Of a stretch of DNA of 51,716 bases, positions 3,166-50,595 are shown piece by piece. A program made the position numbers and the translations under genes. Source of the DNA: Candidatus Gastranaerophilales bacterium. GTDB lineage: Bacteria; Cyanobacteriota; Vampirovibrionia; Gastranaerophilales; Gastranaerophilaceae. Position 1 is the stretch's first letter; each line of letters starts with the position of its first letter. Below the pieces are notes generated by a model that did no database searches, was not told the origin of the DNA, and saw nothing but the letters and a program-made list of their open reading frames with translations. The stretch is taken from the NCBI GenBank assembly GCA_944326425.1, contig CALVDX010000015.1:1-51716 (forward strand), read 5' to 3'.

Positions 3166-4035
3166 ATGGCACTTACTCTTAACACAAACATCATTTCGAT
3201 GAAGGTTAGAACAAACCTTCAATCCGCTACTGATGGTTTGAACACTGCCATTGAAAGAATGACAACCGGTTATAGAATTAATTCATCTATGGATGATGCG
3301 GCCGGATATTCAATTGCAGTTCAGATGGAAGCGGATTTGGGTTCTTACAATGTGGCATCTGACAACACTCAAATCGGGTCAGACATGTTAACAACGTTGG
3401 AAGGTAACTATGACTTGATTAACGATCACCTTCAACGTATCAGAGAATTAACAGAACAAGCATCAAACGATACTTACGGTGATGATTCAAGAGAAGCTAT
3501 TGAGGCTGAAATCAATGCCCGTTTGGATGAAATTACCCGTATTGCAAAATCTTGTAATTATAACGGTTTAAAACTTATGGATGGTTCTGTAAGAGCTGAA
3601 GGTTATAATATACAGGTTGGTATTGACGGTGATGAAACCAGCCGTATTAACCTCTCGCAAGATTTATTTGCTGATTGTACAAGTTCTACAATTTTTGCGG
3701 GATTAGGTGCAGGCACACCTGCAGAAGTTGCTGAAAAATGTGCCGGATTGAATGGTAACCTCGCTTATGAAATGCTTTCTGTGTTAGACGATGCAATGGC
3801 TGATGTTTCATCAAGAGTTACTCTTCTCGGGGCTGCTCAAAACAAGATTGAATCTGCTGCATCATCTATAGAAGTAGCAACTATTAACCAAACATCTTCA
3901 CTTTCTACAATAAGAGACGCGGACGTTGCAGAAGAATCAACAAACTATATCCAACAACAAATTATTCAGAGTGCCGCATCGACACTGTTGGCAACTGCTA
4001 ACCAAACTCCGTCGATAGCTCTCGATTTAATTTAA
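3166..4035 (+). CDS. fliC: Flagellin (filament subunit)
   Basis: Structural subunit of the flagellar filament, exported through the flagellar type III system. The 289 residues consist almost entirely of the conserved D0/D1 ends. The N-terminus starts ALTLNTNIISMKVRTNL, with ERMTTGYRINSSMDDAAGYS corresponding to the usual [20 protein letters not shown]. The C-terminus has NYIQQQIIQSAASTLLATAN before an SIALDLI tail. The central D2/D3 surface domain is short or missing, so the filament should be thin and plain. It is a single-gene transcript with AGGAG ribosome-binding site and its own terminator, convergent with the fliR end of the export operon. The symbol follows general usage (hag is equivalent). 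Confidence 0.94.
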   Translation: MALTLNTNIISMKVRTNLQSATDGLNTAIERMTTGYRINSSMDDAAGYSIAVQMEADLGSYNVASDNTQIGSDMLTTLEGNYDLINDHLQRIRELTEQASNDTYGDDSREAIEAEINARLDEITRIAKSCNYNGLKLMDGSVRAEGYNIQVGIDGDETSRINLSQDLFADCTSSTIFAGLGAGTPAEVAEKCAGLNGNLAYEMLSVLDDAMADVSSRVTLLGAAQNKIESAASSIEVATINQTSSLSTIRDADVAEESTNYIQQQIIQSAASTLLATANQTPSIALDLI

Positions 4036-4121: not shown

Positions 4122-4901
4122 TTAAAATATAGCTGCATGCGAATTAAAAAAGTCTGTAATTATATTTACAAGCATTGGTAAAATCCAAATCATTATCGCT
4201 GCGCCAAACACAGGTTTAAATAAGAAACTCAATTGGAAAACGTTTACCTGCGGCGCCGTTCTTGAAATAATACCCAGGATAATATCCTGCCCGAGTGTTG
4301 CAAGGAGGATTGGCGCCGCCAATTGCAGTCCGATATAAAGCACGTTTGAAGTCATTGTAATGAGATAGTCCATATTTATTATCTGGTCTAAAGGAATACT
4401 GTTTGCATATATCGGGAATATTTCAAAGCTTCGTATTAAAGCTTTAAACATCCAATATAATCCGCCTATATGGATAAATAAAATTGTACCGAATAGTGTT
4501 AAAATATTGCTCAATAAAGCAGTTTGGCTGTTTGTTGAAGGATCCATAACCATAGCGGAAGATAAACCCATCTGGGTATTAATCATATCCCCTGCCGATT
4601 CTATTGCAAGTATTAAAAGTCTTGCCGTATACCCGATTATTGCCCCGCAGGTTATATTAAGGATTACAAGCAGCATAAGCGATGTACCGCTTGGAACAGG
4701 CGGCGGGTTTAAAAGCGGGGTCAGCATCAGGGTAAATAAGAATACAAATCCTATTTTTACATAAGAAATTACGTCTGTTCTATGAAACACAGGTGCAAAG
4801 CGAATGAAGCCTATAAGACGCGCAAATACAACAACGCCGGCAAAGAAGTAAGCGTTAAACTGTGGAAATAATGTTGATATGCCGCTTATGATTTGTTCCA
4901 T
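4122..4901 (-). CDS. fliR: Flagellar export gate protein FliR
   Basis: Inner-membrane component of the flagellar type III export gate; in solved gates one FliR completes a ring with five FliP and four FliQ. At 259 residues it is of family length, with about six hydrophobic segments. Conserved stretches include FARLIGFIRFAPVF near the N-terminus, IGYTARLLILAIESAGDMI with the following QMGLSSAMVMDP (the family GExiGxQmGlsma-DP region), and LLATLGQDIILGIISRTAPQ near the C-terminus. It is the last gene of the operon; its ATG overlaps the stop of the preceding exported protein by one base (TAATG). FlhB and FlhA, which usually follow, are not present here. Confidence 0.95.
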   Translation of the reverse strand: MEQIISGISTLFPQFNAYFFAGVVVFARLIGFIRFAPVFHRTDVISYVKIGFVFLFTLMLTPLLNPPPVPSGTSLMLLVILNITCGAIIGYTARLLILAIESAGDMINTQMGLSSAMVMDPSTNSQTALLSNILTLFGTILFIHIGGLYWMFKALIRSFEIFPIYANSIPLDQIINMDYLITMTSNVLYIGLQLAAPILLATLGQDIILGIISRTAPQVNVFQLSFLFKPVFGAAIMIWILPMLVNIITDFFNSHAAIF

Positions 4902-5320
4902 TAATTTCCCTCATCTCCTATTTGTATTTCAATAGAGGTTAAACCTTTTGGGGTTACTCGTTTTTTGGCGGGAAGCACCGGCGGTTCGTCAAGTTCAAAT
5001 ACTCCGGGTGCTGTATCCAGTATATAGCAGGTATAGTTGCCGCTTGTTTTTAGTTCTGTTTTATTCTTTGTTATATTCATATCAAACTCGCTTTTTTTGC
5101 CGTTTGATGTTAAAGTAAATTTGCCTTTACCCTCTTTTTTGCATTCAACTATGATGGTGTTTTTCTCATTCATAATTGTTGTCATTTCATGAATTTCTAT
5201 AATATCCGGAGTGTTATTATCAATAGCTGTAATAGCGTTATCAGAAGTTATTACATAATTCTCAAATCCAAATGCTGCAGGTGCAATTGCAATACAGCAT
5301 AATATAATTAATTTTTTCAT
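4901..5320 (-). CDS. Small exported protein encoded between fliQ and fliR, function unknown
   Basis: A 139-residue protein with a clear signal peptide (MKKLIILCCIAIAPAAFGF, cleavage likely after AFG). I do not recognise a family. The mature part is one small beta-rich domain (roughly residues 20-95) in which a segment about disordered/decision residues (DNAITAIDNNTPDIIEIHE) is followed by NEKNTIIVECKKEGKGKFTL. This loosely recalls the N-terminal beta-domain of pilus/secretin proteins, which recognise a turn between two strands. The tail is proline- and lysine-rich. Its ATG abuts the fliQ stop and its stop overlaps the fliR ATG, so it is translated in lockstep with the export gate. A periplasmic partner of the gate or rod is an inference. 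Confidence 0.8.
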   Translation of the reverse strand: MKKLIILCCIAIAPAAFGFENYVITSDNAITAIDNNTPDIIEIHEMTTIMNEKNTIIVECKKEGKGKFTLTSNGKKSEFDMNITKNKTELKTSGNYTCYILDTAPGVFELDEPPVLPAKKRVTPKGLTSIEIQIGDEGN

Positions 5321-6166
5321 CTATTCCCACCCCATTATTTTGTTTGTTTCCACGAAATTAGGTTTTGGCATTGGCGGCATTCTGTTTGCATCATATTTTA
5401 TTTTTTGCTGACGGTCTATAAACGGCACTTTACCCGGATTTTTCATAATTTCATTTAATGTTGGTTTGTTTTTGAAAGAATCTGTCATTTCGTTTTCAAA
5501 AGGGGTTGTATACCTGTAGTAATCGGCAGGCAGGGCAAATGTTCCTTCTGCCGGTGCTACTTCAAACGCAAGTACGTACCCTTGTCTGAAAGTGTTTTCA
5601 AGGATTTTTATAAAACCGAAACCAAGCAGAATTATAACAAGGAATACCATAAATATTTTTGGCGCTGCAACAATTGTTTGTTCCTGAACCTGAGTGACTG
5701 CTTGTACAATACCTATAACTAACCCCACGGCAGCCGCGGTTATAACGGCCGGCATTGCAATTGCAAGCATTGACAATATTGCCCTTCCCATATATTCCAT
5801 CAAATGTCTTACATCAGGTAATGTTCGCTTTGAAACGTCGTTTACAAGCGTTAACGGCGGAGAATATTTGTGATAATCAGCAGGCAGCACGTATGTTTCA
5901 TTCTTTGGCAGAATATTGAAAGCAAGGTTTGCCCCCTCCTGAAAATTGTTTATAAGACTGTTAGCGAAAGTGTATCCGCCAATTAGTATAACCATAAATA
6001 CGAGTAAAATTTTAGGGGCTGCAACGATTGTTTGTTCCTGAATTTGTGTTACGGCTTGTAATACCCCGATAATCAAACCTACTGCGGCAGCGGTAAGCAC
6101 TATTGGCATTGATATAGAAAGCATTACCATAAAACCTTTAGCTAAAAAATTTGCAAGTATCTCCAT
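5321..6166 (-). CDS. fliQ: Tandem FliQ-FliQ fusion, flagellar export gate
   Basis: FliQ is normally about 89 residues with two membrane helices, and four copies pack around FliP/FliR. This 281-residue protein holds two full FliQ units, at about residues 2-76 and 123-196. The core AAAVGLIIGVLQAVTQIQEQ (26-45) recurs as AAAVGLVIGIVQAVTQVQEQ (144-163), an offset of 118 residues. Each unit is followed by the same extra motif, TYVLPADYHKYSPP (91-104) and TFALPADYYRYTTP (209-222), again 118 apart. The ancestral unit was therefore already extended before it doubled. A further 55-60 residue proline/asparagine-rich tail follows. There is no stop or frameshift between units. It sits in normal FliQ position, 9 nt after fliP. 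Confidence 0.95.
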   Translation of the reverse strand: MEILANFLAKGFMVMLSISMPIVLTAAAVGLIIGVLQAVTQIQEQTIVAAPKILLVFMVILIGGYTFANSLINNFQEGANLAFNILPKNETYVLPADYHKYSPPLTLVNDVSKRTLPDVRHLMEYMGRAILSMLAIAMPAVITAAAVGLVIGIVQAVTQVQEQTIVAAPKIFMVFLVIILLGFGFIKILENTFRQGYVLAFEVAPAEGTFALPADYYRYTTPFENEMTDSFKNKPTLNEIMKNPGKVPFIDRQQKIKYDANRMPPMPKPNFVETNKIMGWE

Positions 6167-6175: not shown

Positions 6176-6814
6176 TTAATTGTAACTTTGTACCAAGCCT
6201 TGAACAATTAGCGCCCATCCGTCTACTGCAATAAATATAAGAAGTTTAAACGGAAGTGAAATAATTGTGGGTGATAACATCATCATACCCAGTGCTAAGA
6301 GTATATTTGCAACAACAAGGTCAAGTACGATGAATGGAACGTAGATTATAAACCCGATTTCAAATGCTGTTTTTAATTCACTTAGTATATATGCAGGTGC
6401 TACTTCCCAAATTGTTATATCCTCGGGAGTTTTGGGAGGTTCTTTGCGTTTTAATTCTACAAAAAATGCTAAATCGCTTTCCCTTGTCTGTTTCATCATA
6501 AATTCTTTTAGCGGTTTTGAGCCTTCATTAATTGCCATAACAAGATTTTGATTTTTCTGGTATGGTACAGAACCCATTTCGTACATTTTTTGGAATACCC
6601 CGCCCATTGTATAGAATGTAAGAATTAAACATAATCCCACAGTTGCAAGTGCAGGCGGAACCTGAACGCCCATTGCTGATTTAAGAAGCGAAAAAACAAT
6701 GATAAATCTTAAAAATGATGTCATACAGCAGAAGATAAACGGCAGCAGCGAGAATGATGCCATTACGATTAAAAGTTGTATTACAGGACTTAAATCTTTT
6801 AGTACGTTATCCAT
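6176..6814 (-). CDS. fliP: Flagellar export gate protein FliP
   Basis: Core inner-membrane protein of the flagellar type III export gate, five copies of which form the pore with FliQ and FliR. The 212 residues have four hydrophobic segments. Diagnostic motifs are CCMTSFLRFIIVFSLLKSAM near the N-terminus, QVPPALATVGL, and in the C-terminal half AYILSELKTAFEIGFIIYVP and VVANILLALGMMMLSP. It is shorter than E. coli FliP because it lacks the cleaved signal peptide, a known variation in the family. It overlaps the end of fliO by 16 nt and precedes the fused fliQ by 9 nt. Confidence 0.96.
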   Translation of the reverse strand: MDNVLKDLSPVIQLLIVMASFSLLPFIFCCMTSFLRFIIVFSLLKSAMGVQVPPALATVGLCLILTFYTMGGVFQKMYEMGSVPYQKNQNLVMAINEGSKPLKEFMMKQTRESDLAFFVELKRKEPPKTPEDITIWEVAPAYILSELKTAFEIGFIIYVPFIVLDLVVANILLALGMMMLSPTIISLPFKLLIFIAVDGWALIVQGLVQSYN

Positions 6815-7200
6815 GAATCTTCTTCCTTCCGCTCCAGGCGTTCATTAATTTTTTGTAAAATCCTTTTGTTGGTTATATGAATATCTTCACTTTCAAAACT
6901 TTTTGACGGTGTTACCTGTGGTAAAATATTTGCTCCCTGCTGTTTTGACGGATTAAGTTTAGACAGCATAGTTGTACGTTCTGTGTCGCCTGCAACAAGA
7001 AAATATTCTTCTCCGGCTTTTACTACGTAAAGAGTTTTTCTGGGTGCAATTATTAATTTGTCCTGAACGCTCAGAAGCTTTCCGGCTTGTTTGTTTGCAG
7101 GCAGTCCGCATACTCTTTTATAAATGCTTACTGCGATAAGCATTACACCAGACATTGCAAATGCGTATACTATAAAATTTGTAAGATATCCGATATTCAT
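6799..7200 (-). CDS. fliO: FliO-like flagellar assembly protein
   Basis: FliO is a small membrane protein that assists assembly of the FliP ring. This 133-residue protein has one N-terminal membrane helix (about residues 8-28). A small beta-rich cytoplasmic domain follows with LSVQDKLIIAPRKTLYVVKA and GEEYFLVAG, matching the FliO pattern of a strand pair ending in Gly. A charged coiled tail (KINERLERKEED) completes it. Sequence conservation in this family is poor, so the call rests equally on position immediately upstream of fliP. Confidence 0.85.
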   Translation of the reverse strand: MNIGYLTNFIVYAFAMSGVMLIAVSIYKRVCGLPANKQAGKLLSVQDKLIIAPRKTLYVVKAGEEYFLVAGDTERTTMLSKLNPSKQQGANILPQVTPSKSFESEDIHITNKRILQKINERLERKEEDSWITY

Positions 7201-7233: not shown

Positions 7234-8337
7234 TTAACTATCCGGGTCAAAGTCGCTGTAATCAAACTCTTCTTTTCCGCTGTCTTCAGGAGAAGGAATT
7301 GCATCAGGATAGTTGTCCTGTGTATTTTCTGTGCTTCCTTCCGCTTGAGGATTTATTCCGTCGATTTTAACTCCGTAACGATCGTTTATGATTACTAAAT
7401 CTCCATACGCAACGGTTTTTCCTCCAACCTGCAGGTAAACCTTGTTGTCATAAACGGAACTTATATCTACAACGATGCCTTCTTCTATGTTTTTTAATTC
7501 ACCAAGCGGAATTTTAACTTTTTCAAACACTGCGGTCATATCTACCTGAATACTGTCCCAAAGGTTTGTATTATCTTCGCTCATTTCACTTCCTCCACTA
7601 TTTTCCAAGGGAACTACGAGTTTTTTGTCCGGTTTTATTTTTACGTCTTTAATAATTTTGTTGCCGACAATTAAATGCATATTATTTGCTTTGCTGTGGT
7701 CGCAAACAACTATATCTCCGGCATCAAGCCGTTTGATATCCGCAAGCGGAAATCTTGTGCTTCCGAGAATGAAATTGACTTCTACAAGCGCATTTGCAAG
7801 AAAATGTTCTTGTATTCTTCCCGGTTTTGCTTCTCTTTTGGGCGGGGTAAGGATATCACGCGGCAGGGATATTATAAATTTAGCCGCATCATCGGATAAT
7901 TCGTTTTTTACTAAAAATGTTAAATGCAAAATTTCAGAGTACTTTTTTTCTCTTTCAATCTTGAAATTCGGGGTTAGTTTTTCATATAAAAAATCGTTAA
8001 ATGCTGTTATGATTTTTGCCTCAAGTTCTGTAACTTCTGTCAGTTCAAAATTTTTGTTTGCACTGCCCAGAACTTTATCTAAAATAACATTAATCGTTTC
8101 TTGTGAAATTCTTATGAAAATGTCACTCTTTTTATTTATTTTAATTTTTGTTACAAAAAATGTTTCATTTTGGGAAAGGATATTCATGTTCTGACTGACA
8201 GAAATGAGTTTAAACCGGAGCCCTTCAAAGAAAAATTCATCGGAAGCAGACTGTACAACCGGTGCAAAGGTTGCTTCTATCCAACCATATTCTTCATATA
8301 GGTCATTAAATACACTGCTAAGTATTGAAGTACTCAT
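7234..8337 (-). CDS. Dual-SPOA flagellar switch protein (FliM/FliN-like)
   Basis: A component of the cytoplasmic C-ring, which sets rotation direction and feeds the export gate. The 367 residues contain an N-terminal region (about 1-165) with no recognised motif. Two SPOA (surface presentation of antigens) domains follow: the first near 183-236 (LGSTRFPLADIKRLDAGDIV), the second near 262-328 (FEKVKIPLGELKNIEEGIVV, then VGGKTVAYGDLVIINDRYGV). The acidic C-terminus is probably disordered. FliN has one SPOA domain and FliM one after a CheC-like domain, so a protein with two resembles a FliM-FliN or type III SctQ arrangement. First gene of the operon, 33 nt before fliO; no separate fliG, fliM or fliN is visible. 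Confidence 0.85.
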   Translation of the reverse strand: MSTSILSSVFNDLYEEYGWIEATFAPVVQSASDEFFFEGLRFKLISVSQNMNILSQNETFFVTKIKINKKSDIFIRISQETINVILDKVLGSANKNFELTEVTELEAKIITAFNDFLYEKLTPNFKIEREKKYSEILHLTFLVKNELSDDAAKFIISLPRDILTPPKREAKPGRIQEHFLANALVEVNFILGSTRFPLADIKRLDAGDIVVCDHSKANNMHLIVGNKIIKDVKIKPDKKLVVPLENSGGSEMSEDNTNLWDSIQVDMTAVFEKVKIPLGELKNIEEGIVVDISSVYDNKVYLQVGGKTVAYGDLVIINDRYGVKIDGINPQAEGSTENTQDNYPDAIPSPEDSGKEEFDYSDFDPDS

Positions 8338-8537: not shown

Positions 8538-11500
8538 ATGAATAAGCCAAAAAAATTATTAATTGTTGCGGCTGTTGTTGCGGCTATATCATTGTCTGCG
8601 GCTTCTTATGCAGAGGATATAACTATAGATTCAGGAACCGCAACTCTTAATACTTCAAACGGCTCTATATCTTATAGCGGGGATACATATTCCTGGGGTG
8701 AGACGTCCGGAAACGTTTTGATACTAGACGGCGGCACTATTTCTATAGTGGCAAGAAGCAACGGTGCTATAACCGGTGTAATTCAGGCAATGACAGGCAG
8801 GCTTACCTGTACCGGCTCCGGAAATAATTCTAATCGTACGATATTAAATATTGGTGCAGGGTCCAGTATTGCTGAGGCTGTTAATATTGATCTTGGAACA
8901 TTTGCAATTTTAAATGTTAATAATGGCGGGGTATTAAATATAGACAGCAGCGATTCCTTAGGCTCGCGTTCTTATATAGGTTTGGGAGATGGCGGTATTT
9001 TGAACGCTAACGGCGGGTCTGTTATTATACAGGGAACCGGCGGTACTTTAAATATTACGGGAGGAACTCTGACTCTTAATACAGATACATACTCTCCCGG
9101 GTCTATTGCTGCTGATGTGGTTATTAACTCGGTGTCCGGCAGTATTCTGGATGTATCTGCAGGAGTCGTATATCTTAATTCTAATGATAACCTGCAGGGC
9201 GGGTTAACCCTTCGCGGATCGGGCATAATAAATATTCAGGGAACATCGTTGACTTCTAATGGGTACACACAATCTGCCGGTGACCTTAATATTTCTTCTT
9301 CTGAGTTTACCGTCGGGGAGGGGTCTTCTGTAACAGGCGGTAATATTACACTTAGTGATAGTTCTACTCTCAATGTTCAAAATGGTGCGGATTCAGATTT
9401 TTCTGCTTCTATTAATGCAGGAAGCGGTGATAGCATTAATGTCGATAATACTTCCACTGTTACATTGACCGGCGGAACAATCGATGCTAATACCGTTCTT
9501 AACGTTGCGGCGGGGTCCGGCATGAATGTTTCGGGAAGTTCTGCTGTTCTAAATATTAATAACAATGATAATTATTCAGGCTCTCTTTCTGTTGCTTCCG
9601 GTACTGCAAATATTTCAAATAAAGATTTTATAACCGACGGCACTGTTAACTTTAATATGACAGGCGGTACTGTTAACCTTGATTCTTCTGAAGTAGCTTT
9701 AAATACTGCAGGTTCACTTATAAATGGCGGAACTATTAACATGCAGAATAATTCCGGGGTGGCTCTTAATAATTCACAAACAAATATTGCTTCTATAACT
9801 ACCGATTCTACCTCTAATACTTTAGATATAACAGCCGATTCAACACTCGAAATGATTGGCGGGCAAATAGCAGAAGATACCGCAGTTAATATTGAAAATG
9901 GCTCGGGCCTTTTAGTAAACGCATCTGCAGCATCGGCTTCAATTGATGATAATGACGTTTGGGCAGGTCTTTTGGAAATATTGAACGGGACTTTAACAAT
10001 TAAAGATAAAATCGCTGAAGCCTCCTCAGGATCAATGTTTGTGCAAACAGGCGGAACGTCAAATATTAGTAATTCCGGTCTGGTGCTTGATACGGAAGAT
10101 GCTTATATAGCAGGCGGTACGCTTAATTTTACGGATAATTCTACTTTAAGTATTTCTAACGGTTTAGAAAACAGAGCTGCATTAAACATGACAGGAGTTA
10201 ATAATTTTAACATTAATAACTCATCTTCTTTTACCATGAGTGCAGGCAGTGTAGCAGAAGAAACAAATGTTAATCTGGCTTCCGGGGCAACATTAAATAT
10301 CAGTGAGGGCGCTGCTTTATCGCTTGATGATACTGATATCTGGGAAGGACTTCTTTCCTCTGACGGCAGTGTAAATATGGCTGATATGAATGTAAGTACG
10401 GATGAAAATCGTATTTATCAGCAGGCTGCAAATGACGGCGCTGCAGTTCTAAATCTTGATAATACATCTCTTACTATTAATGAAGGGTCATTTTCTGAAG
10501 GCGGAACGATTAATCTCTCTAATAGCAGTGATTTAACTTTTCAAAATAACAGAAATAATTATGCAAGTATTAATACAACAGCAGATACAAATGAAAATTT
10601 AACAGTTGCTGATAATACAATATTAACCCTTCAGGGCGGAACAATTACAGAAAATGCTGTTTTGGATATTGCGGGAAATTTGGACATAAGCGGGGCTACG
10701 GTTACATTAGATTCTGATACCGATACCCTGACCGGAGATTTGACGCTGCTGCGCGGAACACTTACATTAAAGGAAATTCAAAAACAATCCGGTTTCGCGC
10801 AAACGGGCGGTATTTTAAATGTAGATGCTTCAAACCTTGAATTAACCGGGGATACGGATGTCCTTGACGGGGGATCGTTAAATCTTACAAATAATTCATC
10901 ACTTACAATTTCTAACGGGGTGTCTAACAGTACAGATAGTATTTCTACTGATGAGTCGGTCAATAACATTGTAATAGAAAATTCTTCAAATTATACGGTA
11001 CGCGGCGGTTCAATTACACAGCCCGCGCATGTTACGATTGACAGCGGAGCAGGACTTACTGTTGCAGGGGCAGATGTCACTTTAGACAGTGCTACAGACA
11101 ATTGGAACGGTTCGTTGGCTCTTAGTTCCGGAACAACTTCTCTGCAAAATTTCAATGGCTCAGGGGCAGTAGTAACTGATTCGTCTAAGACTTTTAATCA
11201 GAGCGGCGGAACTCTTAATCTTAACAGCTCGGATATTACGCTTAATGAAGGATCTGCAATCACAAGCGGGCAGGTTAATTTAACAAATGCATCAGAACTT
11301 ATTTTTAATAACGGAGTTACAAATACAGCAAATATTACGACTAATGATATCTCTACAAATATTCTCCGGATAAGTAATAATTCTACTCTGACTTCTATAG
11401 GCGGAATTATTAATGAGGCCGCTAGTGTAACAATAGATTCAGGGGCTGCATTGAATATTAGCGGGGTAAATTCTGATATTACAATTAGTTCCGAAGATAC

Positions 11501-12758
11501 CTGGGATGGACAGGTTGCTATTTCTAACGGAACATTAAATATAAAAGACGGGATGCATGCCACAGATACATCTAAAACCTTTGTCCAAACCGGCGGGACT
11601 CTCAACCTGAACGGAACATCTCTTCAATTAAATACTGAAAATTCCTACGTTAATCAGGGTACTGTCAACTTAAGTAATAATTCAATGCTTACTTTTGATA
11701 ACGGTAGAACTGATAATACTGCGGTTATTAATACTTCTGATACTTCACTAAATAATTTAATAGTATATGAAAATTCCGGTTTAACGCTTACCGGCGGAAC
11801 AATTAATAAAGAAGCCTCCGTAACAATAGATTCCGGAGCGGATTTAACCATTAGAGGTGCAGGGGTTTCTTTAAATAACACTGATACGTGGTCCGGCGGT
11901 ATTACATTATCGAGCGGTTCTTTAACATTAACTGACGGATTAAATGCTGTTACAACTGCTAATAAAACTTATGTACAGAATGGCGGCAGTTTGTATGTTG
12001 ACAATGCATCTCTTACTCTGGATACTCCTGAATCTTATATTTCAACCGGTATCGGGTATTTGCAGAATGGCGGGAGTTTAACAATTGCTAACGGCTTGGA
12101 TTCTAACAGCATGTCACTGTATGCAAATGATAACAGCGCAAGTTCTCTGGATATTATTGAAAACTCTACGTTGACTTTGACAGAAGGAACAGTTGATACA
12201 GCTTCTCAGGTTAATATTGATGACGGTTCTATACTTAATACGACAGGGGCTACTGTTAATATTGACGGCGCTTCCGGAGATGTATGGAGCGGGGAAATAG
12301 ATATTAACGGCGGTACGCTTAATGTTTCCAATACTAATTTGGATAATGGGGTATTAAGAGGAGAAAGAGGAAGTATAACACTGGGTGCAAACTCAAAGCT
12401 GAATCTAGCTTCAGGGTCTATTATTACCGGAACTATGAGAACGGTAATTCAGGATACAGGAGAACTGCATATAACCGGTGGTACAACCGCAATAAATAAT
12501 GGTGATACATGGTCCGGCGATATATATCTTACCGACGGGAGTTTATCCTATACTTCGTTAATTGAAAACGGTAATATATATGCAGACGGCGGAAGCCTGA
12601 GTGTTTATAATACCAGCGGGCGCGGTACCCTTCATGTAGATGGTGATTCATATATTAATGCGGCAACAGATGTAAGCTTAACCGGAAGCGGAACATTTGC
12701 GATAACCGATGGTGATGTATATTTTAATGAAGGTGATACCTGGCTTCAAATACTTTAA
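8538..12758 (+). CDS. Giant autotransporter-type adhesin, N-terminal part (split by frameshift)
   Basis: The first 1,406 residues of what was evidently one protein with the next frame. It starts with a signal peptide (MNKPKKLLIVAAVVAAISLS..., cleavage after ASYA, residues 22-25). The rest is a beta-solenoid built of repeated units of about 100-150 residues, rich in Gly, Ser, Thr and Asn. Each unit passes through QTGGTLNL, SLTLN, GGTVNLSNNS, LTGGTI, VTIDSGA and a W-containing turn such as DTWSG. About a dozen W-turns occur here. It has no membrane barrel of its own. Translation ends at TAA 12756-12758, right after a W-turn (DTWLQ), while the continuation is open in the -1 frame. As it stands the product would be secreted to the periplasm without an anchor. 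Confidence 0.85.
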   Translation: MNKPKKLLIVAAVVAAISLSAASYAEDITIDSGTATLNTSNGSISYSGDTYSWGETSGNVLILDGGTISIVARSNGAITGVIQAMTGRLTCTGSGNNSNRTILNIGAGSSIAEAVNIDLGTFAILNVNNGGVLNIDSSDSLGSRSYIGLGDGGILNANGGSVIIQGTGGTLNITGGTLTLNTDTYSPGSIAADVVINSVSGSILDVSAGVVYLNSNDNLQGGLTLRGSGIINIQGTSLTSNGYTQSAGDLNISSSEFTVGEGSSVTGGNITLSDSSTLNVQNGADSDFSASINAGSGDSINVDNTSTVTLTGGTIDANTVLNVAAGSGMNVSGSSAVLNINNNDNYSGSLSVASGTANISNKDFITDGTVNFNMTGGTVNLDSSEVALNTAGSLINGGTINMQNNSGVALNNSQTNIASITTDSTSNTLDITADSTLEMIGGQIAEDTAVNIENGSGLLVNASAASASIDDNDVWAGLLEILNGTLTIKDKIAEASSGSMFVQTGGTSNISNSGLVLDTEDAYIAGGTLNFTDNSTLSISNGLENRAALNMTGVNNFNINNSSSFTMSAGSVAEETNVNLASGATLNISEGAALSLDDTDIWEGLLSSDGSVNMADMNVSTDENRIYQQAANDGAAVLNLDNTSLTINEGSFSEGGTINLSNSSDLTFQNNRNNYASINTTADTNENLTVADNTILTLQGGTITENAVLDIAGNLDISGATVTLDSDTDTLTGDLTLLRGTLTLKEIQKQSGFAQTGGILNVDASNLELTGDTDVLDGGSLNLTNNSSLTISNGVSNSTDSISTDESVNNIVIENSSNYTVRGGSITQPAHVTIDSGAGLTVAGADVTLDSATDNWNGSLALSSGTTSLQNFNGSGAVVTDSSKTFNQSGGTLNLNSSDITLNEGSAITSGQVNLTNASELIFNNGVTNTANITTNDISTNILRISNNSTLTSIGGIINEAASVTIDSGAALNISGVNSDITISSEDTWDGQVAISNGTLNIKDGMHATDTSKTFVQTGGTLNLNGTSLQLNTENSYVNQGTVNLSNNSMLTFDNGRTDNTAVINTSDTSLNNLIVYENSGLTLTGGTINKEASVTIDSGADLTIRGAGVSLNNTDTWSGGITLSSGSLTLTDGLNAVTTANKTYVQNGGSLYVDNASLTLDTPESYISTGIGYLQNGGSLTIANGLDSNSMSLYANDNSASSLDIIENSTLTLTEGTVDTASQVNIDDGSILNTTGATVNIDGASGDVWSGEIDINGGTLNVSNTNLDNGVLRGERGSITLGANSKLNLASGSIITGTMRTVIQDTGELHITGGTTAINNGDTWSGDIYLTDGSLSYTSLIENGNIYADGGSLSVYNTSGRGTLHVDGDSYINAATDVSLTGSGTFAITDGDVYFNEGDTWLQIL
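12747..12758 (+). other. Single-base frameshift junction in the giant adhesin
   Basis: After ACC TGG CTT CAA the frame reads ATA CTT TAA. One extra A in the AAA run at 12748-12750 would give CAA AAT ACT TTA ATA ACC CTT and join seamlessly to the downstream repeat region. The downstream frame is open from here through 12815. The site is not a canonical X-XXY-YYZ slippery heptamer. Confidence 0.85.
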
Positions 12759-12814: not shown

Positions 12815-15800
12815 TTGCAGGCCTCTTCCGGTAATGTTGATATTCATTCGGGGATTCTTAATTTTACTATTAATACGGCATATATTTCAGAGGATGTTGA
12901 ACTAACGTTAGATGAAGGCGGTAAGATATTCATATCAAATACCAGCGGTGTTACAATCAACAACGGCGGTGCTGAAGGTACAAATGATACTTGGAACGGA
13001 GATATTGAATTAACCGGAGGGACTCTTAATATATCCGGTTATGAAAAGACTACTTCTGATACTTCTACATACACACAATCAGGGGGGACACTTAATTTAA
13101 GTGATGGTACAAATCTTACATTGAATGAAGGATCTCAGATTACCGGAAGCTCTACTACTATTAATTTTGCGTCATCAGGCGATACATCATCCCTGACATT
13201 GGCAAACGGGGCAGAAAACAGTGCAATTCTTTCGACTTCCGGCCGCGGAGACAGTTTTTCTCTTTCTGATAATTCAGAATTTACACATGTCAGGGGAACA
13301 ATAGAGGAAGCAGATACTGTTAATATTGGCGCAGGGTCTACGTTTAATCTTGCAGGCACAGCTTCCAGCAGGTTATCAACACTTTATTTAAACGAAGATG
13401 ACAACTATTCCGGAAATATTGATCTTTCATCAGGTTATGGACGTCTTTATCTTAATGGTGTAACAAAGGCTGAAACGGGAACTCTTGTTCAATCTTCTTC
13501 TAATGCTGTTACAACTATTACCGGTGACAATTTTGTCTTTAATAATGCGGGTGATAATGTTTCGGGCGGAACACTTAATATCGGTACGAGCAGTGATAAT
13601 GCCAGTGTTGGTGTTTCTGCAGGAACTATTGATGCCGGAGCGGGTATTAATATTAATGACGGATCTACGCTTAATATTTCAGGCGGCTCTGTTACTGTTA
13701 ATGCCGGCGATACCTGGGCAGGTGATATAAATCAGACCTCGGGTACTTTAATTTATGATGGTTTAACTTCTAATGGCGGATTAAATTCAACAGGCGGAGA
13801 TTTTAATTTAGTAGGAAATGCTATTTTAAAACTCGGGGAAACTTCAAATATATCCTCTGCGACAAATGTATCTATAGGAGCTAATGCGGAGATAGATATA
13901 ATAGACGGAACAAGCTTATCTTTGGACGCACAGGATGAGTGGCTGGGGCTGGTTCATAATACAAATGGAATATTAAATGCTGATAGTGTAAATAAAGCAG
14001 AAGGATCTTCATATATACAGGAAGGTGCAGATTCTGTTTTAAATGTCACAGGAACAGGTTTCAACCTTTCAGGAGAGAGCGATGAAATATCCGAAGGCCG
14101 TTTAAATGTCGGGGATGAGAACGGTACGCTTTCTGATTTCACTATTTCAAATGGAACAGTTGCGGATGCTGTTACTGTTAATGTTTTTGAAAATGCAGCA
14201 CTTATAATCGATGGCGGTGAATTAACTCTTTCAGATACTGATACGGTCAATGGCACACTTGAATTAAGAGACGGCTTATTAACCTTAGAAGACTGGATTT
14301 TAAATGCCGGATATGTACAAACAGGAGGACTTCTTGATATGTATGGCTCCGAACTTCATATTTCGGATGCAGGTTCTTCTGTAAGCGGGGCTGTTCATTT
14401 AAATGATAATTCACTTTTAGATTTAAGTGCAGCATCTGATAGTGAACTTGAAATCCAAACAGACGGTACTGCAAATAGTATTAACATAGGTGCCGGCAAT
14501 GTGACAGTTAATAATCAGACTTCTATTGATAATAATGCAAGTGTAAATATTTCTAACGGTGCCGGTTTTAATATTGCGTCGGGAACTGTTAATTTAAATT
14601 CCGGTGATACCTGGGCTGGAGAAATTAATAATAGTGCAAATTTAAATATAGATAATCTTTCTAAGACAGGCATATTTACCCAGACAGATAGTGGTGCCGT
14701 TACAAACATAACCGGTTCCGGCTTTGATTTAGGGGCTGTCGGTGATGAGGTTAGTGCAGGACAGTTAAATGTGGGGAATGTTTCTCAGTCCGGAGAACTT
14801 GCAATTTCAATAGGTACAGTTGGTGAAAATACGGCTGTTAATTTAGCGGATGGCTCTTCTATTAATATATCTGGCGGTAGTTTGACGCTAAATGACAATG
14901 ATATTTGGGACGGTGATATTGGGGCAAGTGCCGGAACTCTTAATATACTTTCTCCAATTGAAAGAGAAGGTTCTTTGACTTTAAATGGTGCTACTGCCAA
15001 TATTTATTCCTCATTTGTGATTGACGGTAATGATTCACTAACAAGCGGTATTCTTAATGCTTATGGAGATCTCGCTCTTGAAAATAACGCAGAGATTGCT
15101 TCGGATGTTGCTCTGACAATATCCAGAAATACAACAGTTGATATAGATAATACCTCAACTTTAACTGTCGGCAGGGATGATTACTGGTATGGAAGTATTA
15201 ATAATAACGGGACTTTAAATTTGTCATCAGATAAGATTACTGATGCGGGGTCTGCTTACGTTCAGTCCGAAGGGGTTTTAAATATATCTGATGCAGCTAA
15301 TTTAACACTTACGGAAGGAAGTTCTATAACTAATAACGGTACAGTTAATCTGTCAGAGGCTTCAGGGATAACATTTAATAACCAAAATGCAAATAGTGCT
15401 GTTATTAATACAACGGATAGTACAGCAAATAGTATTGCGGTCTCTGAAGGTTCTTCACTTTCACTTGAAAATGGTACTAATATTAATGCAGATGCAGGGG
15501 TTAATTTCTCAGGTGACGTATCAATTGCCGGCGGTAATCTTGTATTAAATACCGGAGATATTTTAGCAGGTAATTTGACTAATACCGGTGCATCGGTTGT
15601 TTTTGACGGACTTACTAAATCAGGTGTGTATACTCAAAATGATGAAGATGCGCTGCTCAGTATTCTTTCTGATTTAACGCTTGGTAGTACTGACTCCATT
15701 ACTGCCGGCGGCTTGAATATTGACGGGGCTAATTTGACATTAGACGGCTTATCAATAACTGATAATATAGACGTGACTATTGACTCTGACGGGCTGCTTA

Positions 15801-18800
15801 CAATTTCTTCAGGGAGCTCTGCTTACTTATCATCTGATGATACAATTAACGGGTCGATTGATAATTCAGGGAGTTTAACAGTAAAAGATATTACGCTCGG
15901 AAATTCATATTCTCATAATAATGCTGAATTAATTATGGATAATTCAAGGTTCAATGCCCAAACCGGAGTTGTAGACGGCGGAAGTATTACATTAAACAAC
16001 AATTCGGTATTAAATATTTCTAACGGTGTAAGTAATTCATTTGGTGTAAATACAGACTCTACAAATAACCGGCTGGGTATTGCCAATAATTCAACTGTTA
16101 CATTGGAGAGCGGCAACATACTGGAAGATACTATTTTAAATCTCTCAGAAGGTTCTAAATTAACAATAGGGGATGCTTCGGTTTCAATTAATGATAAAGG
16201 TGTATCTGCCGATATTTGGGAGGGTACTATAGAACTAAACAGTGCTAATAGCACATTAGAACTTGTAGATTTTACATCGCATGTCGGGGAATTAATTGCG
16301 GAACAGGGAAATTTAAGATTGTCCGGAAATACTGTTATATCGTTGACCGATGGTTCTATAGCCGAAGCAGTGGCATTGGACATAGGAACTGATGCTGCAT
16401 TATACTTATCAGGGGCCTCATTAAACCTTGATTCTGCCGATAATTGGGGCGGAACAATTATTATGAATAATGCTTCATCTTCTTTAACCTTACAAGATAT
16501 GGTTACGGATGACGCTTCAAATTTGGTAGCTGAAAGCGGAAATTTAACCCTTACAAACTCTACTTTGAATTTGACCGGAACATCACAAATTAGTTCTGAT
16601 GTTAACGTTAATATCGAATCGGGTTCTACTGTTAATATAACCGGCGGAAACGTGACCTTAGACGGCTTAACGGATGTTTGGGACGGGAAATTAACAATAA
16701 GCAACGGGAATTTAACGTTGAATGATATGGAGAAATCAGAGAGCGGAGTATTCCAGCAAACGGGGGGAACAACAACGATACTGGGAACGAGCTTTGATAT
16801 GAATAATAGCGAAGACTATGTACAGTCCGGCACATTGATAGTAGGAGATGGTTTAAATGAGGCATTGTTAACGGTATCAGAAGGAAAGATATATGATGAT
16901 GCAACGCTTGTAATACGTGATAAAGGTGAAGTAAATATAATAAATAATGGAACAGGCGGCGAAAGCGGAAGCGGAAGCGGGGGATTAGACTGGGCCGGAC
17001 ATGTACAGGTAGACGGCGGTAGATTAACAATAGATGATACGGAAAAGACGGGAACGTTAACGCAGACTGGCGGAGAAATAATAGTAAGCGGTGACTTTGA
17101 CTTAAATAACACCGGAGACCGTATAAGCGGCGGGAGTATGACAGTAGACGGGAATTTAGGAGTAAGTTCCGGCGTAATAGAAGCAGGAAACAGCCTGAAT
17201 ATAACGGAGTCGGGTGAAATCACAATAAACGGCGGAAGCGTAACGGTAAACGGCGGAGATATCTGGAACGGTTTGGTTTCGCTTACGGATGGAATTTTAA
17301 ACGTAGATGGCTTAAGCGGACAATTCGGGTATTCCCAATCCGGCGGTGTTCTTTCGCTGTCAAATTCTTCTGATTTTACTATTGACGGCGGCTCTGTAAT
17401 AACTGGCGGCGAAATTAATATTGATAATAGTTCTCTTACTTCTTCCTTAGGATCAGAAATTAACAACGCGTCTGTTAATTTAACAAATAGTTCTGATTTA
17501 ACAATTTCTAACGGGGCACAAAACTCTATTGGTTTTAGTTCCGATTCCTCTTCAAATACGGTGACTCTTACTGATAGTTCAAGCTTAACTCTTAACTCAG
17601 GAACGCTCAGAGAAGAAACAGTCCTTGATATTCAGTCAGGAACAAGTCTTGATATAGCAAATAATTCTTCTGTTATACTGGATTCAAACTCCGGTACTGC
17701 TGATAACTGGAATGGAGAAATTACACTTGTAAATGATGATAGTACTTTAATATTAAAAGATTACACAAAAGAGGGAACAAGCCAGTTGAATGCTGAGCGC
17801 GGTAATTTTGTTCTCGATGGAACTACTCTTTTGACTCTGACTGATGGAACGATTGCTCAGGAAGTAAAGCTTTCAATCAACGAAGATGCAAGACTTAACC
17901 TCTCCGGCGCTTCTTTAACTCTTGATAATGCTGATACGTGGCTTGGTACTATTGGTATGGATAATGCAGGAAGTACTTTGACCCTCGAAGGAATGGAAAT
18001 AGATGATAACGCCAATTTAATAGCATCCGAAGGAAATCTTGTTCTTGATAATACTGTTTTAACTATTGGCGGGTCATCAAATATTAGTAATGATGTAAAC
18101 CTGAATATTGATGAAAATTCAGTTGTCAACTTTACCGGCGGCAGTTTAAATATAAACGACGGAGATACATGGAACGGGCAGGTTAATAATCTTGGCGGAG
18201 CCTTAACAATTGATAAAAATACTACTAATAAAACAGGTTCTTTAGTGCAAAATTCAAATAGCGCTGCTACAACGGTGCTTGGAAGCTCTTTTGACTTGAA
18301 TAATGCATTAGATAGTATATCGGCAGGCAGGCTGACGGTTGGTAACGGGGTTGATAACGCATTATTAACTGTTTCTCAGGGGAGTATCGGTGCCGATACA
18401 GTATTAGATATAACCATGAATTCGGATATTTCTATTACAGGCGGAAATGTTACATTAAATGACAACGATATTTATCTTGGTGATGTGACTGTAAGTAATG
18501 GAAATTTAACTTTAGACGGTACAAATAAAACCGGCAGTTTAGTCCAAAACGGCGGCAGTATTACGATAGCTTCTGATTTTACTCTTAACAATATTTCTGA
18601 TAGTTTAACAGGCGGAAGTTTGAGTATTGCGCAGGATGCGGGGCTGACTATTGAGAACGGAAGTATAGGCAGCGGCTCTGCTATTTCTATGGGGCAAAAT
18701 TCTGAAATTAATGTTACCGGCGGGGAATTAACATTAAATGATAATGATATTTGGAGTTCGGAAATTAATGTTGATGGCGGAACTCTAAATATTTACGACC

Positions 18801-21800
18801 CTCAAAAAACCGGCAGTTTGGTGCAAACATCAGGGGTTACAAATATTTTGCAGGACTTTACACTTAATAATGCAGCAGATAGTATTACAGGCGGCAGACT
18901 CTCAATTGCGGACGGAGCAGATTTAACTATTGCAAATGGTGAAATTACATCAGATGCCGCAGTAGAGATGGCGGCTGATAGTGAATTAAGTGTCACCGGC
19001 GGAAGTGTGGTACTAAATAGAGATAATGATACCTGGAGCGGCTTAGTTACCCAGAATGGCGGAAGTTTAACCGTTTCCGGTTATGATAATACAAACCGAA
19101 ACGGGGGAATTCAATCTTCAAACGGAAGTTTGAATATTCAGGACGGTTATTTAACAATTGCCGGCGGCTCATCTGTTGGTAATAATACGGCTTTAGATAT
19201 AAATTCGGGCACAACGCTTGATATAACCGGCGGTACGGTTAGCATGAACGGTAATGATACGTGGAATGGCGATGTTGCTTTATCAAACGGCAGTTTAACT
19301 CTGTCCGGAGTAGATAAAACAACCGGCAGCGGGTCTAGCTTTACACAAACAGGCGGAAGTCTTGAATTAAATGACAGCAGTCTTGCTTTAAATGATGCTA
19401 ATTCAGGAATTTCTAACGGTGATGTTGGTTTGATCGGGTCTGATTTGACCGTAAATAATGGTAATGTTACAAATAGTGATATTACAATGGAGAATTCATC
19501 CGGATTAACTATTTCAAACGGAACATCTAACAGTGCAAATATTTCTACTGACGATACTTCTAATGATATTTCAATTTCAGGAAACGGAACAGAACTTGAT
19601 ATTACGGGCGGCACAATTTCACAGAGTGCAAATGTAAACCTCGGGGCAGGTACGACTGTAAATATTATCGGAGATGGAGCAAACGTCACCTTAGATGGCT
19701 TAACGGATGTTTGGGACGGGAAATTAACGATAAGCAGCGGGAACTTAACGTTGAATGATATGGAGAAATCCGGGAGCGGGATATTCCAACAAACCGGTGG
19801 AACAACAACGATACTTGGAACGAGCTTTGATATGAATAATAGCGAGGACTATGTACAATCAGGCACGTTGATAGTGGGAGACGGAATAAATGAAGCATTG
19901 TTAACGGTATCAGAAGGAAAGATATATGATGATGCAACGCTTGTAATACGTGATAAAGGTGAAGTAAATATAATAAATAATGGAACAGGCGGCGAAAGCG
20001 GAAGCGGAAGCGGGGGATTAGACTGGGCCGGACATGTACAGGTAGACGGCGGTAGATTAACAATAGATGATACGGAAAAGACGGGAACGTTAACGCAGAC
20101 TGGCGGAGAAATAATAGTAAGCGGTGACTTTGACTTAAATAACACCGGAGACCGTATAAGCGGCGGGAGTATGACAGTAGACGGGAATTTAGGAGTAAGT
20201 TCCGGTGTAATAGAAGCAGGAAACAGCCTGAATATAACGGAGTCGGGTGAAATTACAATAAACGGCGGGAGTGTGACCGTAAACGGCGGAGATATCTGGA
20301 ACGGCTTGGTAGAAGTTACAGATGGTGACTTGATTGTTGATACAGGCGCTAATAAAAACGGTATTTTAACTCAAACCGGCGGTAGTACTGTTATTATGGA
20401 TGATTTTGATTTGAATCACTCATCAGATTTAATTTCCGGCGGTGAATTGGAAATTCAGAACGGGACATTAACAATATCTCAGGGAACAGTTACCGCTGAT
20501 ACCGATGTAAATATTAATAACAATGGCGGAATTGATTTGACAGGCGGAAATCTTTCCTTGAATGCGGATGATATTTGGAATGGTGATGTTAGTGTTACCG
20601 GCGGTAATCTCGTAATTTCCGAAATTAATGACAAAACCGGAACACTTACCCAAACAGCAGGTGATATAACTATTACAGGAGATTTTAATTTAAATAATGC
20701 AAATGACTTAATTTCCGGCGGCAATATTACTATCAGTAATAATTCTGATTTAACGGTGTCTGGCGGAAATATAACATCAGATGCAAATATAGATATTAAT
20801 ACGGGATCCGGTTTGACTGTTGCCGGCGGGACGGTTCAAATAGATGCGGGAGATATCTGGAACGGGGATGTTGCTTTGTCAGATGGAAATTTGGTATTGT
20901 CTGCTGATAAAGAAACATCATCAGGTTCTGGTTTTGCGCAGAACGGCGGAACGCTCGATTTAAATTCAAGTTTGACATTAAATGAAGGAAGTTCAATAAC
21001 AGGAGATAGTATTGTTAATGTCACAGGCGGAAATCTTGTGTTTAACAACAATACACAAAATCAGGGGAATATAACTGCAGATGCAGGTTCAACAATTGGT
21101 ATAAATTCAGGTTCATCACTTAACTTGACCGGCGGAACTATTGCGGATACTTCTATTATTGATTTCTCCGGTGATTTATCTATATCGGGGTCTGAAACAA
21201 TTGTAAATATAGGTGCTGATGATAATTGGGCAGGAAATTTAACACTAGCAGGCGGAAATTTAAATCTTGCGGTTGATAAAACTACTTCAGCAAATTCTGC
21301 ATATAATCAAACCGGCGGGAATCTTAACATAACCGGCAGCGGGTTAACATTAAACAGCGGTTCTTCTATTACAGGCGGAAATGTTGACCTTGATAATTCG
21401 TCGCTTACAGCTTCAGGTGACAGCAGTATTTCTTCTGCAAATGTAAATCTTGGGAATTCCTCGTCGCTGGTTTTAGATAATGGTAAAAATAATACAATCT
21501 CTATATCTGCGGATACAACGGCCAATACAATAGATATTAATGAAGGCAGCGGTTTAACTCTTGTCGGCGGTGAGATTATATCAGAAACCGAACTGGGTAT
21601 TTACGGGGATTTAAACATAAATAACGATGCGATTGTTACCGTTGACGGTTTGGATAGCTGGGAAGGCAAGATATCTCTGAACAACGGGACTTTGATTCTC
21701 GATAATGTTACTGATGCGGGGGATTTTGAGGCGCAATCCGGAACATTGAAAATTCTTGGCTCTGAAACAACACTCGGGGATAACCTGGCTGTAAATAAAG

Positions 21801-45096: not shown

Positions 45097-45145
45097 TTTT
45101 TATAACCGAATTGTAAAAAAAAGAAATTTTAGAAAGGAGATTTTT

Positions 45146-45787
45146 ATGTTTAAAAAAAACAAAATTGTAACAGACAATCCGGAAATTATGGCAGATGAAG
45201 AACCTTTATACTACGGAGATAATTCATATTCTGCCGGATACGGATCTGAAACTGCGCCGGCGGATGAAAGAGTTCCGCACCCTCTGGATAGAAATTCTAT
45301 CCTCGGAAAATTCAAATCAGTAGAAGATTTATCAAAGGCTTACCTTGAACTTCAAAAAAAGTTCGGGCAGCTGTCAAGAGAAACGGGAGAACTTCGTAAA
45401 ATAGCGCAGGAATATGAAGCCCACATGGCACGTTGCGAGGCCGGAAGAAAACAGTTAGAGGATTTCAAAAGGCTGGTTGACGGGATGGGCAGTAAATACA
45501 ATACGGAAGCTTATCTTCAAAACCGCGAGTTTAGAGATCTGTTAAAAGCTGCTTATGATGGATATGGTAACAGTCTGGATGTAGATTCTATGGTAAAACT
45601 TGTTGACAATTACCTCAATTCAAGAATGGCACAGATGCAAAGAGCGGATGCTCTGAAATCTGAGTCAGATAAGGCTACAGATATGCTTGCATACACTAAT
45701 AACCAGTCTAAGTTTAAAACTTCAGGGAAAAAACTTACAGATATGACTCCGGCTGAACTTGATAAAGCGCTTGATGAATTAATGTAG
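45146..45787 (+). CDS. Phage capsid scaffolding protein
   Basis: A 213-residue, highly charged helical protein, located between portal and capsid as scaffolds usually are. The start is ATG 45146 behind AAAGGAGA, not an upstream frame opening. An acidic, Tyr-rich N-terminus is followed by coiled-coil segments (LSKAYLELQKKFGQLSRETG, ELRKIAQEYEAHMARCEAGR). A C-terminal helix (LTDMTPAELDKALDELM) could be the coat-binding hook. There is no enzymatic motif. The call depends on composition and position. Confidence 0.75.
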   Translation: MFKKNKIVTDNPEIMADEEPLYYGDNSYSAGYGSETAPADERVPHPLDRNSILGKFKSVEDLSKAYLELQKKFGQLSRETGELRKIAQEYEAHMARCEAGRKQLEDFKRLVDGMGSKYNTEAYLQNREFRDLLKAAYDGYGNSLDVDSMVKLVDNYLNSRMAQMQRADALKSESDKATDMLAYTNNQSKFKTSGKKLTDMTPAELDKALDELM

Positions 45788-45796
45788 TTAGTATTT
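45785..45796 (+). repeat. 12-nt intergenic repeat before the capsid gene
   Basis: TAGTTAGTATTT covers the scaffold stop codon and recurs exactly at 46709-46720 over the capsid stop codon, so the capsid gene is bracketed by the same sequence. Each copy precedes a purine-rich ribosome-binding site. Confidence 0.6.
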
Positions 45797-45814
45797 TAAA
45801 GAAAGGAATTAAAA

Positions 45815-46711: not shown

Positions 46712-46720
46712 TTAGTATTT
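46709..46720 (+). repeat. 12-nt intergenic repeat after the capsid gene
   Basis: Exact second copy of the 45785-45796 sequence, spanning the capsid stop codon. Confidence 0.6.
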
Positions 46721-46741
46721 AGAAAAAGGAGAATTTAAGAA

Positions 46742-47134
46742 ATGGCTAGAGATGTTATTAGTGTAATTTTACCGGAAGTAGAAGCTTCCCAGTCGGTTGC
46801 AACCGAAACAGTTACAGCAAAAACTGTTACTGTTGCAAACGGTATTCAAATAAAAGAAGCTGCAAAAAATAAAAATAATTCGTTGGCAATTGTTATACAA
46901 AATACTGCAGAAACAGCATCAAGTGTAACATTTGCAGCAGGTGATACTTATCCTAACTCTATGTTAGGTGACTTAGATATCCCTGTTGACGCCTCAACGA
47001 CAATTGTTTGTCAAATCCAGGATTTATCAAGGTTTGAAAATCGTGACGGCTCAATCAATATTGATTTTGCTGCCGGATTTACAGGCAATATTTATGCAGT
47101 TGCAAAACGTGCGGGGGTTGCTCCTGTAGAATAG
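46742..47134 (+). CDS. Small phage virion protein, possible head decoration protein
   Basis: A 130-residue Ala/Val/Thr-rich beta-protein encoded right after the capsid, followed by a strong terminator. Repeated strands (ETVTAKTVTVANGIQIKEAA, TASSVTFAAGDTYPNS) suggest an immunoglobulin- or decoration-type surface protein. No family signature was recognised. GGAGAA upstream. Confidence 0.65.
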   Translation: MARDVISVILPEVEASQSVATETVTAKTVTVANGIQIKEAAKNKNNSLAIVIQNTAETASSVTFAAGDTYPNSMLGDLDIPVDASTTIVCQIQDLSRFENRDGSINIDFAAGFTGNIYAVAKRAGVAPVE

Positions 47135-47147
47135 TTTATATTATCTT

Positions 47148-47207
47148 GCGGAACGGGTCTTGTTACTCTCTTCTCTTAATACCTTTTCCCCGTTCCGCTT
47201 TTTTTTT
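47148..47207 (+). terminator. Strong terminator inside the phage late operon
   Basis: A perfect 10-bp stem GCGGAACGGG/CCCGTTCCGC (47148-47157/47189-47198) with a long 31-nt pyrimidine-rich loop and nine T. It would lower expression of all downstream tail genes relative to capsid genes, unless read through. Confidence 0.9.
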
Positions 47208-47221
47208 AAGGAGGTTTTTAC

Positions 47222-48180: not shown

Positions 48181-48195
48181 AAAAAGGAGCAAAAC

Positions 48196-48666: not shown

Positions 48667-48667
48667 T

Positions 48668-50212: not shown

Positions 50213-50213
50213 A

Positions 50214-50594: not shown

Positions 50595-50595
50595 C

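What the first reader, a model, noticed from the sequence alone, without database searches (positions are those of the whole stretch)
5321..6166. FliQ tandem fusion: two export-gate subunits in one chain
Two complete FliQ units repeat at an exact offset of 118 residues, including an extra LPADY(H/Y)(K/R)Y motif after each. Known gates hold four separate FliQ chains; two fused chains would give the same four, fixing subunit pairing. The extension motif suggests a lineage-specific contact in the loop between units. The fusion fits known helical-hairpin topology only if the 45-residue linker can return to the starting side.
Basis: partly seen in the sequence, partly recalled or inferred. Interest (0 to 1): 0.8.

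Follow-up and report, generated by a model that had tools for sequence, protein, structure and literature searches.

The report
Export-gate FliQ duplicated into one chain
In one genus of gut relatives of cyanobacteria, a small pore protein normally made as four separate copies per secretion gate is encoded as two copies fused in one chain, and the gate it belongs to is probably not the swimming flagellum's but a second, motor-less relative of it.

Summary
Window 5321-6166 (-) is one 281-aa ORF with two complete FliQ units at an exact offset of 118 residues (53% identical, E 2e-39). The same fusion, in the same operon (fliN-like, fliO, fliP, fliQQ, X, fliR), is in 6 of 7 sequenced species of the genus, in independent assemblies 84-98% identical. 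Across 383 genomes of the family no other genome showed it among the listed matches; the others carry a single FliQ of about 160-190 aa with the same C-terminal extension. So it is a genuine, lineage-specific internal duplication, not an error. Both units are under strong purifying selection, and both keep the conserved FliQ loop and salt-bridge residues. The most likely working state is two fused chains per gate, giving the usual four FliQ; this is inferred, not shown.

The LPADY motif belongs to the single FliQ of the whole family, not to the fusion. And the gate is probably not the motility flagellum's: this genome has a second, canonical FliP-FliQ-FliR-FlhB-FlhA set plus FliG, while seventeen family genomes without FliG or flagellin keep this FliQ type with its FlhA and FliF. 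It serves a FliG-less, flagellum-derived type III system. New variant of a known kind.

The parts
5321..6166 (-). fliQQ: one ORF of 281 aa with two FliQ units
5813..6166 (-). N-terminal FliQ unit, residues 1-118 (hairpin about 2-82, then linker about 83-118 with LPADYHKY)
   Evidence: Bac_export_3 hit at 5948-6151; helices H2-41, H50-82 in a low-confidence model
5321..5812 (-). C-terminal FliQ unit plus tail, residues 119-281 (hairpin about 119-201, tail with LPADYYRY and IMKNPGKVPFID)
   Evidence: Bac_export_3 hit at 5609-5803; helices H119-159, H164-201; tail shared with single FliQ
6176..6814 (-). fliP (212 aa), intact, with the Met loop (GMMML)
   Evidence: Pfam FliP 1e-65; TIGR01103 over cut-off
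6799..7200 (-). fliO (133 aa)
   Evidence: Pfam FliO 4e-8
7234..8337 (-). fliN/sctQ-like C-ring protein (367 aa, two SpoA-type stretches)
   Evidence: Pfam FliMN_C 1e-21, two stretches; TIGR02480 fliN and TIGR02551 SctQ, both below cut-off
4901..5320 (-). X: secreted 139-aa beta-domain protein between fliQQ and fliR
   Evidence: hydrophobic N-terminus in the sequence; beta-rich model, pLDDT 77; homologues in the same place in relatives
4122..4901 (-). fliR (259 aa), intact
   Evidence: Pfam Bac_export_1 5e-53

Best explanation
The gene is a tandem FliQ, born by internal duplication of the family's extended single FliQ (hairpin plus periplasmic tail of about 80 residues) in the ancestor of one Gastranaerophilales genus. 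The first copy lost most of its tail, whose first part became the linker; the second copy kept the tail. The protein forms two helical hairpins with both ends of each on the periplasmic side. Two chains would fill the four FliQ places of a FliP5-Q4-R1 type gate as neighbour pairs. By pairing subunits the fusion would make FliQ loading go 0-2-4, help keep the weakly held outer FliQ copies in place, and disfavour a fifth FliQ that would block the FlhB site. The gate serves a second, FliG-less flagellum-type secretion system, not the cell's motility flagellum. Shown: fusion, conservation, selection on both units, operon, co-occurrence pattern. Inferred: stoichiometry, pairing, effect on assembly, what is secreted.
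For: Two full units, E 2e-39. Same fusion and operon in 6 of 7 genus members; no other genome in the listed matches of 383 family genomes. Both units under purifying selection: pooled pN/pS 0.047 (N unit), 0.099 (C unit), against 0.30 in the linker. Each unit forms its own clade across species, so both predate the species and were kept. Shared derived residues in both units (C22 lost, V33I, A48V) and non-rejection of one N+C clade (AU p 0.40) fit one internal duplication. The salt-bridge residues of FliQ-FliQ contacts (Salmonella E46-K54, PMC6863770) are E44/K52 and E162/K170, invariant in all six. FliQ units diverged faster than single FliQ while FliP did not speed up and FliR barely did. Strong ribosome site at the start, only weak ones at conserved internal starts. 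Gate with FlhB has four FliQ, and a fifth blocks FlhB (PMC7064499); outer SctS copies are lost easily (PMC6593402). FliG, flagellin and canonical FliQ co-occur, while this FliQ type, FlhA-B and FliF-B persist without them in 17 genomes.
Against: No complex was modelled; the AlphaFold model of the chain is poor (pLDDT 45), so only its secondary structure is used. Nothing shows that both hairpins enter the same gate, or that the chain is not cut in the linker. FliF-B and FlhA-B are missing from this assembly, though FliF-B is present in all six sister species and FlhA-B complete in four; the seventh species shows no hit for this gate's FliQ. Relaxed or shifted selection, not gain of function, could also explain the faster change of both units.
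Confidence: 0.62

Rival explanations
1. The fusion is selectively neutral: a chance tandem duplication lost its stop, the gate works as before with four FliQ units, and the link has no effect on assembly.
For: Restricted to one genus; linker evolves fast (pN/pS 0.30); FliP and FliR show little extra change.
Against: Kept in six diverged species (synonymous sites near saturation) although a deletion could undo it; both units changed together away from the single-copy state.
Confidence: 0.25
2. The chain is processed: a protease cuts the linker, or an internal start makes a second protein, so mature FliQ units are separate.
For: Linker is poorly conserved; M123 is conserved in all six and could start a second protein. 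Proteolytic separation has been proposed for the natural FliR-FlhB fusion of Clostridium (PMC7064499).
Against: Ribosome-site energies at M123 (-1.4 to -4.2) are well below those at M1 (-7.3 to -12.6); no cleavage motif was looked for.
Confidence: 0.15
3. Only one unit per chain sits in the gate; the other has a new role, for example holding FlhB or the ring.
For: The C unit lost more of the family's helix-1 residues than the N unit.
Against: Both keep the FlhB-contacting loop (QAVTQ(I/V)QEQTIVAAPK) and the FliQ-FliQ salt-bridge residues unchanged; both under purifying selection.
Confidence: 0.1
4. Assembly or sequencing error joined two genes.
Against: Six species from separate assemblies share the same 280-281-aa frame with synonymous divergence; no relative read here has two adjacent fliQ genes.
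Confidence: 0.01

Closest known systems
FliQ / SctS (Pfam PF01313 Bac_export_3; TIGR01402)
   Same: Each unit is a full FliQ hairpin with the conserved loop and salt-bridge residues; lies between fliP and fliR.
   Different: Two units in one chain plus a periplasmic tail; every FliQ/SctS chain matched in the PDB is 86-89 aa with one hairpin.
FliR (structural fusion of a FliP-like and a FliQ-like part)
   Same: Shows that a FliQ unit can work inside a longer chain of the gate (PMC7064499, PMC8239009); the FliR C-terminus gives a weak FliQ-profile hit.
   Different: P+Q type fusion, universal; here Q+Q, in one genus.
Natural FliR-FlhB fusion of Clostridium (NCBIfam NF009411)
   Same: Natural fusion of two export-gate subunits; NCBI has a model for it.
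   Different: Joins different subunits present once each; here it joins two copies of the repeated subunit and so would constrain copy number.
Non-flagellar T3SS without secretin of Myxococcales (PMC3459982)
   Same: FliG-less export system derived from the flagellum, like the system-B reading.
   Different: System B keeps FliE, which the Myxococcales systems lack, and has a FliO hit; no secretin was sought.

Membership tests
FliQ (Bac_export_3) | Match to the curated family profile above cut-off | tested here: met
   Both units 64.8 and 67.4 bits against a cut-off of 25; TIGR01402 fliQ 108.7 for the whole chain against 88.9
FliQ (Bac_export_3) | One hairpin of about 86-92 aa per chain | tested here: not met
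   281 aa, two units; hence filed as a variant
FliQ (Bac_export_3) | fliP upstream and fliR downstream | tested here: met
   (one extra gene, X, between fliQQ and fliR)
FliQ (Bac_export_3) | Inter-subunit salt bridge residues (Salmonella E46, K54) | tested here: met
   E44/K52 and E162/K170, invariant in six species
FliQ (Bac_export_3) | Four copies around FliP5R1 | not testable with these tools
   needs cryo-EM or native mass spectrometry
Motility flagellum export gate | Occurs together with FliG and flagellin | tested here: not met
   17 family genomes have this FliQ type, FlhA-B and FliF-B but no FliG_C and no Flagellin_N
Motility flagellum export gate | FliO present | tested here: met
   Pfam FliO 4e-8
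Motility flagellum export gate | FliE and FliF present | tested here: met
   FliE 1e-17 and FliF 5e-34 side by side in sister species G006; not found in the window's own assembly
Non-flagellar T3SS (injectisome) | Lacks the flagellar rod protein FliE | tested here: not met
   FliE is present next to FliF-B
Non-flagellar T3SS (injectisome) | Secretin SctC and needle protein SctF | not tested
   no search made
Non-flagellar T3SS (injectisome) | No FliG in the gene set | tested here: met
   The 343-aa gene in the FliG place has no convincing Pfam or NCBIfam hit; FliG_C occurs once per genome, beside the other FliF

The most novel reading that the evidence does not exclude
The gate of a FliG-less, flagellum-derived secretion system is built from two covalently paired FliQ dimers whose N and C units have specialised for alternating positions of the FliQ spiral, so copy number four is hard-wired and the FlhB site is kept free.
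Probability: 0.35. Interest if true: 0.68.

Novelty: new variant of a known kind. Interest (0 to 1): 0.5.

Why it matters
How many FliQ copies a working gate holds (four or five), and how they load, was a live question in the structural papers. A natural tandem FliQ allows only even numbers if both units are used, so it is a ready-made tool to test this and to steady the subunit that detergents strip off. The context matters as much: a published survey noted that most Gastranaerophilales genomes then known had only a partial set of flagellar genes (PMC4040986). The pattern here suggests that part of this set is a separate, conserved secretion system found in nearly every family genome searched.

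Tried and rejected
AlphaFold of the whole chain with 25 rows gave pLDDT 45 and pTM 0.24, so no fold search was run on it. Capture of a second FliQ (from the canonical set) as the source of one unit was rejected: both units match the extended family type and share derived residues, while the canonical FliQ is far away on the tree. Tree placement of the C unit is unresolved (long stem); one clade of both units is not rejected. X139 was checked as a secretin N-domain (PF13629, E 0.001 in one homologue, below cut-off) and by fold search; no significant match. Literature searches for tandem or linked FliQ found none; only open-licence papers are held, so this is weak evidence of novelty. The phylum-wide search found no further tandem FliQ in its listed matches, but about half of those genomes have no hit at all, rows were cut off, and other bacterial phyla were not searched as such (the genome-contig scan, based on two peptide patterns of the alignment, returned only relatives of this family type).

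Full report
What is there. Window 5321-6166 (-) is a single ORF of 281 aa. Pfam Bac_export_3 (FliQ) matches twice, far above cut-off. The halves align at an exact offset of 118 residues (53% identity over 101 aa, E 2e-39; 54/104 identities against a best of 22 in 20,000 shuffles). The gene lies in the order fliN-like, fliO, fliP, fliQQ, X, fliR, all on the minus strand.

Is it real. The window's genome belongs to Candidatus Gastranaerophilales (record titles of the close relatives). In six of seven species of the genus the same 280-281-aa fused gene sits in the same operon, at 84-98% identity and with near-saturated synonymous sites. Five of these are separate public assemblies. A FliQ profile finds two units in one frame only in these six; about 90 other family-type loci have one unit in a frame of about 157-189 aa, and none has two adjacent fliQ genes. 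Of 383 family genomes in 41 genera, only these six appear with the fusion among the listed matches; the phylum-level search added none. The seventh species (94% complete) has no hit for this gate's FliQ, yet has FliF-B and FlhA-B, so a gap or a loss.

How it arose. The other family members have a single FliQ with a C-terminal extension: VLPADYYKYT..., then IMKNPGKVPFID..., then a P-N-(F/L)-(V/I)-E end. The C unit of the fusion keeps this whole tail; the N unit keeps it up to about PD(I/V), where the second unit begins. So LPADY is ancestral, and the linker is a cut-down tail. Both units share residues not typical of the single proteins (loss of C22, V33I, A48V), as expected from one internal duplication. 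N units and C units each form a clade; one clade of both is not rejected (AU p 0.40).

Are both units used. Pooled pN/pS is 0.047 for the N hairpin, 0.099 for the C hairpin, 0.30 for the linker and 0.092 for the tail. The cytoplasmic loop that touches FlhB is intact in both (QAVTQ(I/V)QEQTIVAAPK). The FliQ-FliQ salt-bridge residues named in PMC6863770 (Glu46-Lys54 in Salmonella) map to E44/K52 and E162/K170 by the alignment, invariant in all six. Compared with distant relatives, FliP is as conserved in this genus as elsewhere (0.74 against 0.73) and FliR nearly so (0.53 against 0.56), while the FliQ units fell from 0.75 to 0.64 (N) and 0.57 (C). The change is therefore specific to FliQ: either specialisation of the two units or altered constraint.

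How it could work. In solved gates FliQ/SctS is a hairpin with both termini on the periplasmic side (PMC6863770), and the C-terminus of FliR is periplasmic as well (PMC7064499). A linker of about 36 residues (helices end near 82 and restart near 119 in the low-confidence model) thus never has to cross the membrane. Gates with FlhB hold four FliQ, and a fifth would occupy the FlhB site (PMC7064499); SctS copies are loaded one after another and the last are easily lost (PMC6593402). Two fused chains would supply four units in two steps. This is inference; no complex could be modelled.

Which machine it belongs to. The genome has a second set: canonical fliP-fliQ (92 aa)-fliR-flhB-flhA on contig C2 and fliF, fliG, a gene in the fliH place and fliI at the end of the same contig. 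Among 36 family genomes, FliG, flagellin and a canonical-length FliQ hit occur together (one 85%-complete genome lacks FliG). Seventeen (G007-9, 12, 13, 15, 16, 18-20, 23, 24, 26-28, 32, 33) have no FliG_C, no Flagellin_N and no listed canonical-length FliQ, yet have the extended FliQ, FlhA-B and FliF-B. In sister species G006 the B cluster reads FliE, FliF-B, a 343-aa gene with no convincing family hit in the FliG place, FliH, FlhA-B. The C-ring gene in the window matches both FliN and SctQ models below their cut-offs. So the fused FliQ most likely belongs to system B, a FliG-less export system of flagellar descent (it keeps FliE and a FliO). The flagellin gene beside it in this genus (3166-4035) is only weak evidence otherwise, as the genome has eight flagellin-domain matches in all. 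What system B exports is unknown; secretion of envelope or surface proteins is a guess.

Known or new. FliQ, FliR as a P+Q fusion, and FliR-FlhB fusions are known. No tandem FliQ was found in the PDB or in the open literature searched. I file it as a new variant of FliQ. System B is a lead of its own: earlier work described partial flagellar gene sets in this order as non-functional flagella (PMC4040986).

Noticed in passing
G000 contigs C2, C5, C15; sister species G006 contig C15 (L153, L163): Two export-gate sets per genome in this genus: a canonical flagellar set with FliG, and a FliG-less set (system B) kept in nearly all family genomes searched, including 17 without FliG or flagellin.
   Followed up: partly
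window 4901-5320 (-); homologues in L050, L073, L101-L118: Secreted beta-domain protein between fliQ and fliR, present in several genera of the family, absent in others; no significant known fold.
   Followed up: partly
G000:C1:111507-112520 (L006:1072-2541): A 489-aa protein with only the cytoplasmic C-domain of FlhA behind a soluble N-terminal part, found in nearly all order genomes searched as an additional FlhA-like gene.
   Followed up: no
G000 whole assembly: FliF-B and FlhA-B are missing from this 40-contig assembly although it is rated 99.99% complete and sister species have them; probably an assembly gap.
   Followed up: partly
window 8538-12758 and 12815-23908 (+): Two very long repetitive beta-rich ORFs (1406 and 3697 aa), the second ending like an autotransporter barrel, separated by 56 bases; perhaps one giant surface protein gene interrupted by a stop.
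   Followed up: no
window about 43138-51285 (+): Genes that look like a short-tailed phage or prophage (portal-like, scaffold-like, capsid-like, tail-like, lysozyme-like), judged from the translations only.
   Followed up: no
G000:C28:16893, G000:C7:109, G006:C6:28183, G030:C16:11447: Flagellin N-domains inside open frames of 1010-2085 aa, far longer than usual flagellins.
   Followed up: no
L053 2975-3982, L054 570-1349, L055 3981-4766: More distant class members have FliQ with tails of about 170-250 residues, low in complexity and rich in Pro, Ser and Asn.
   Followed up: no
L115 (CAMZGT010000002.1): Record labelled uncultured Acinetobacter carries a Gastranaerophilales-type fliQ operon; the label looks wrong.
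   Followed up: no
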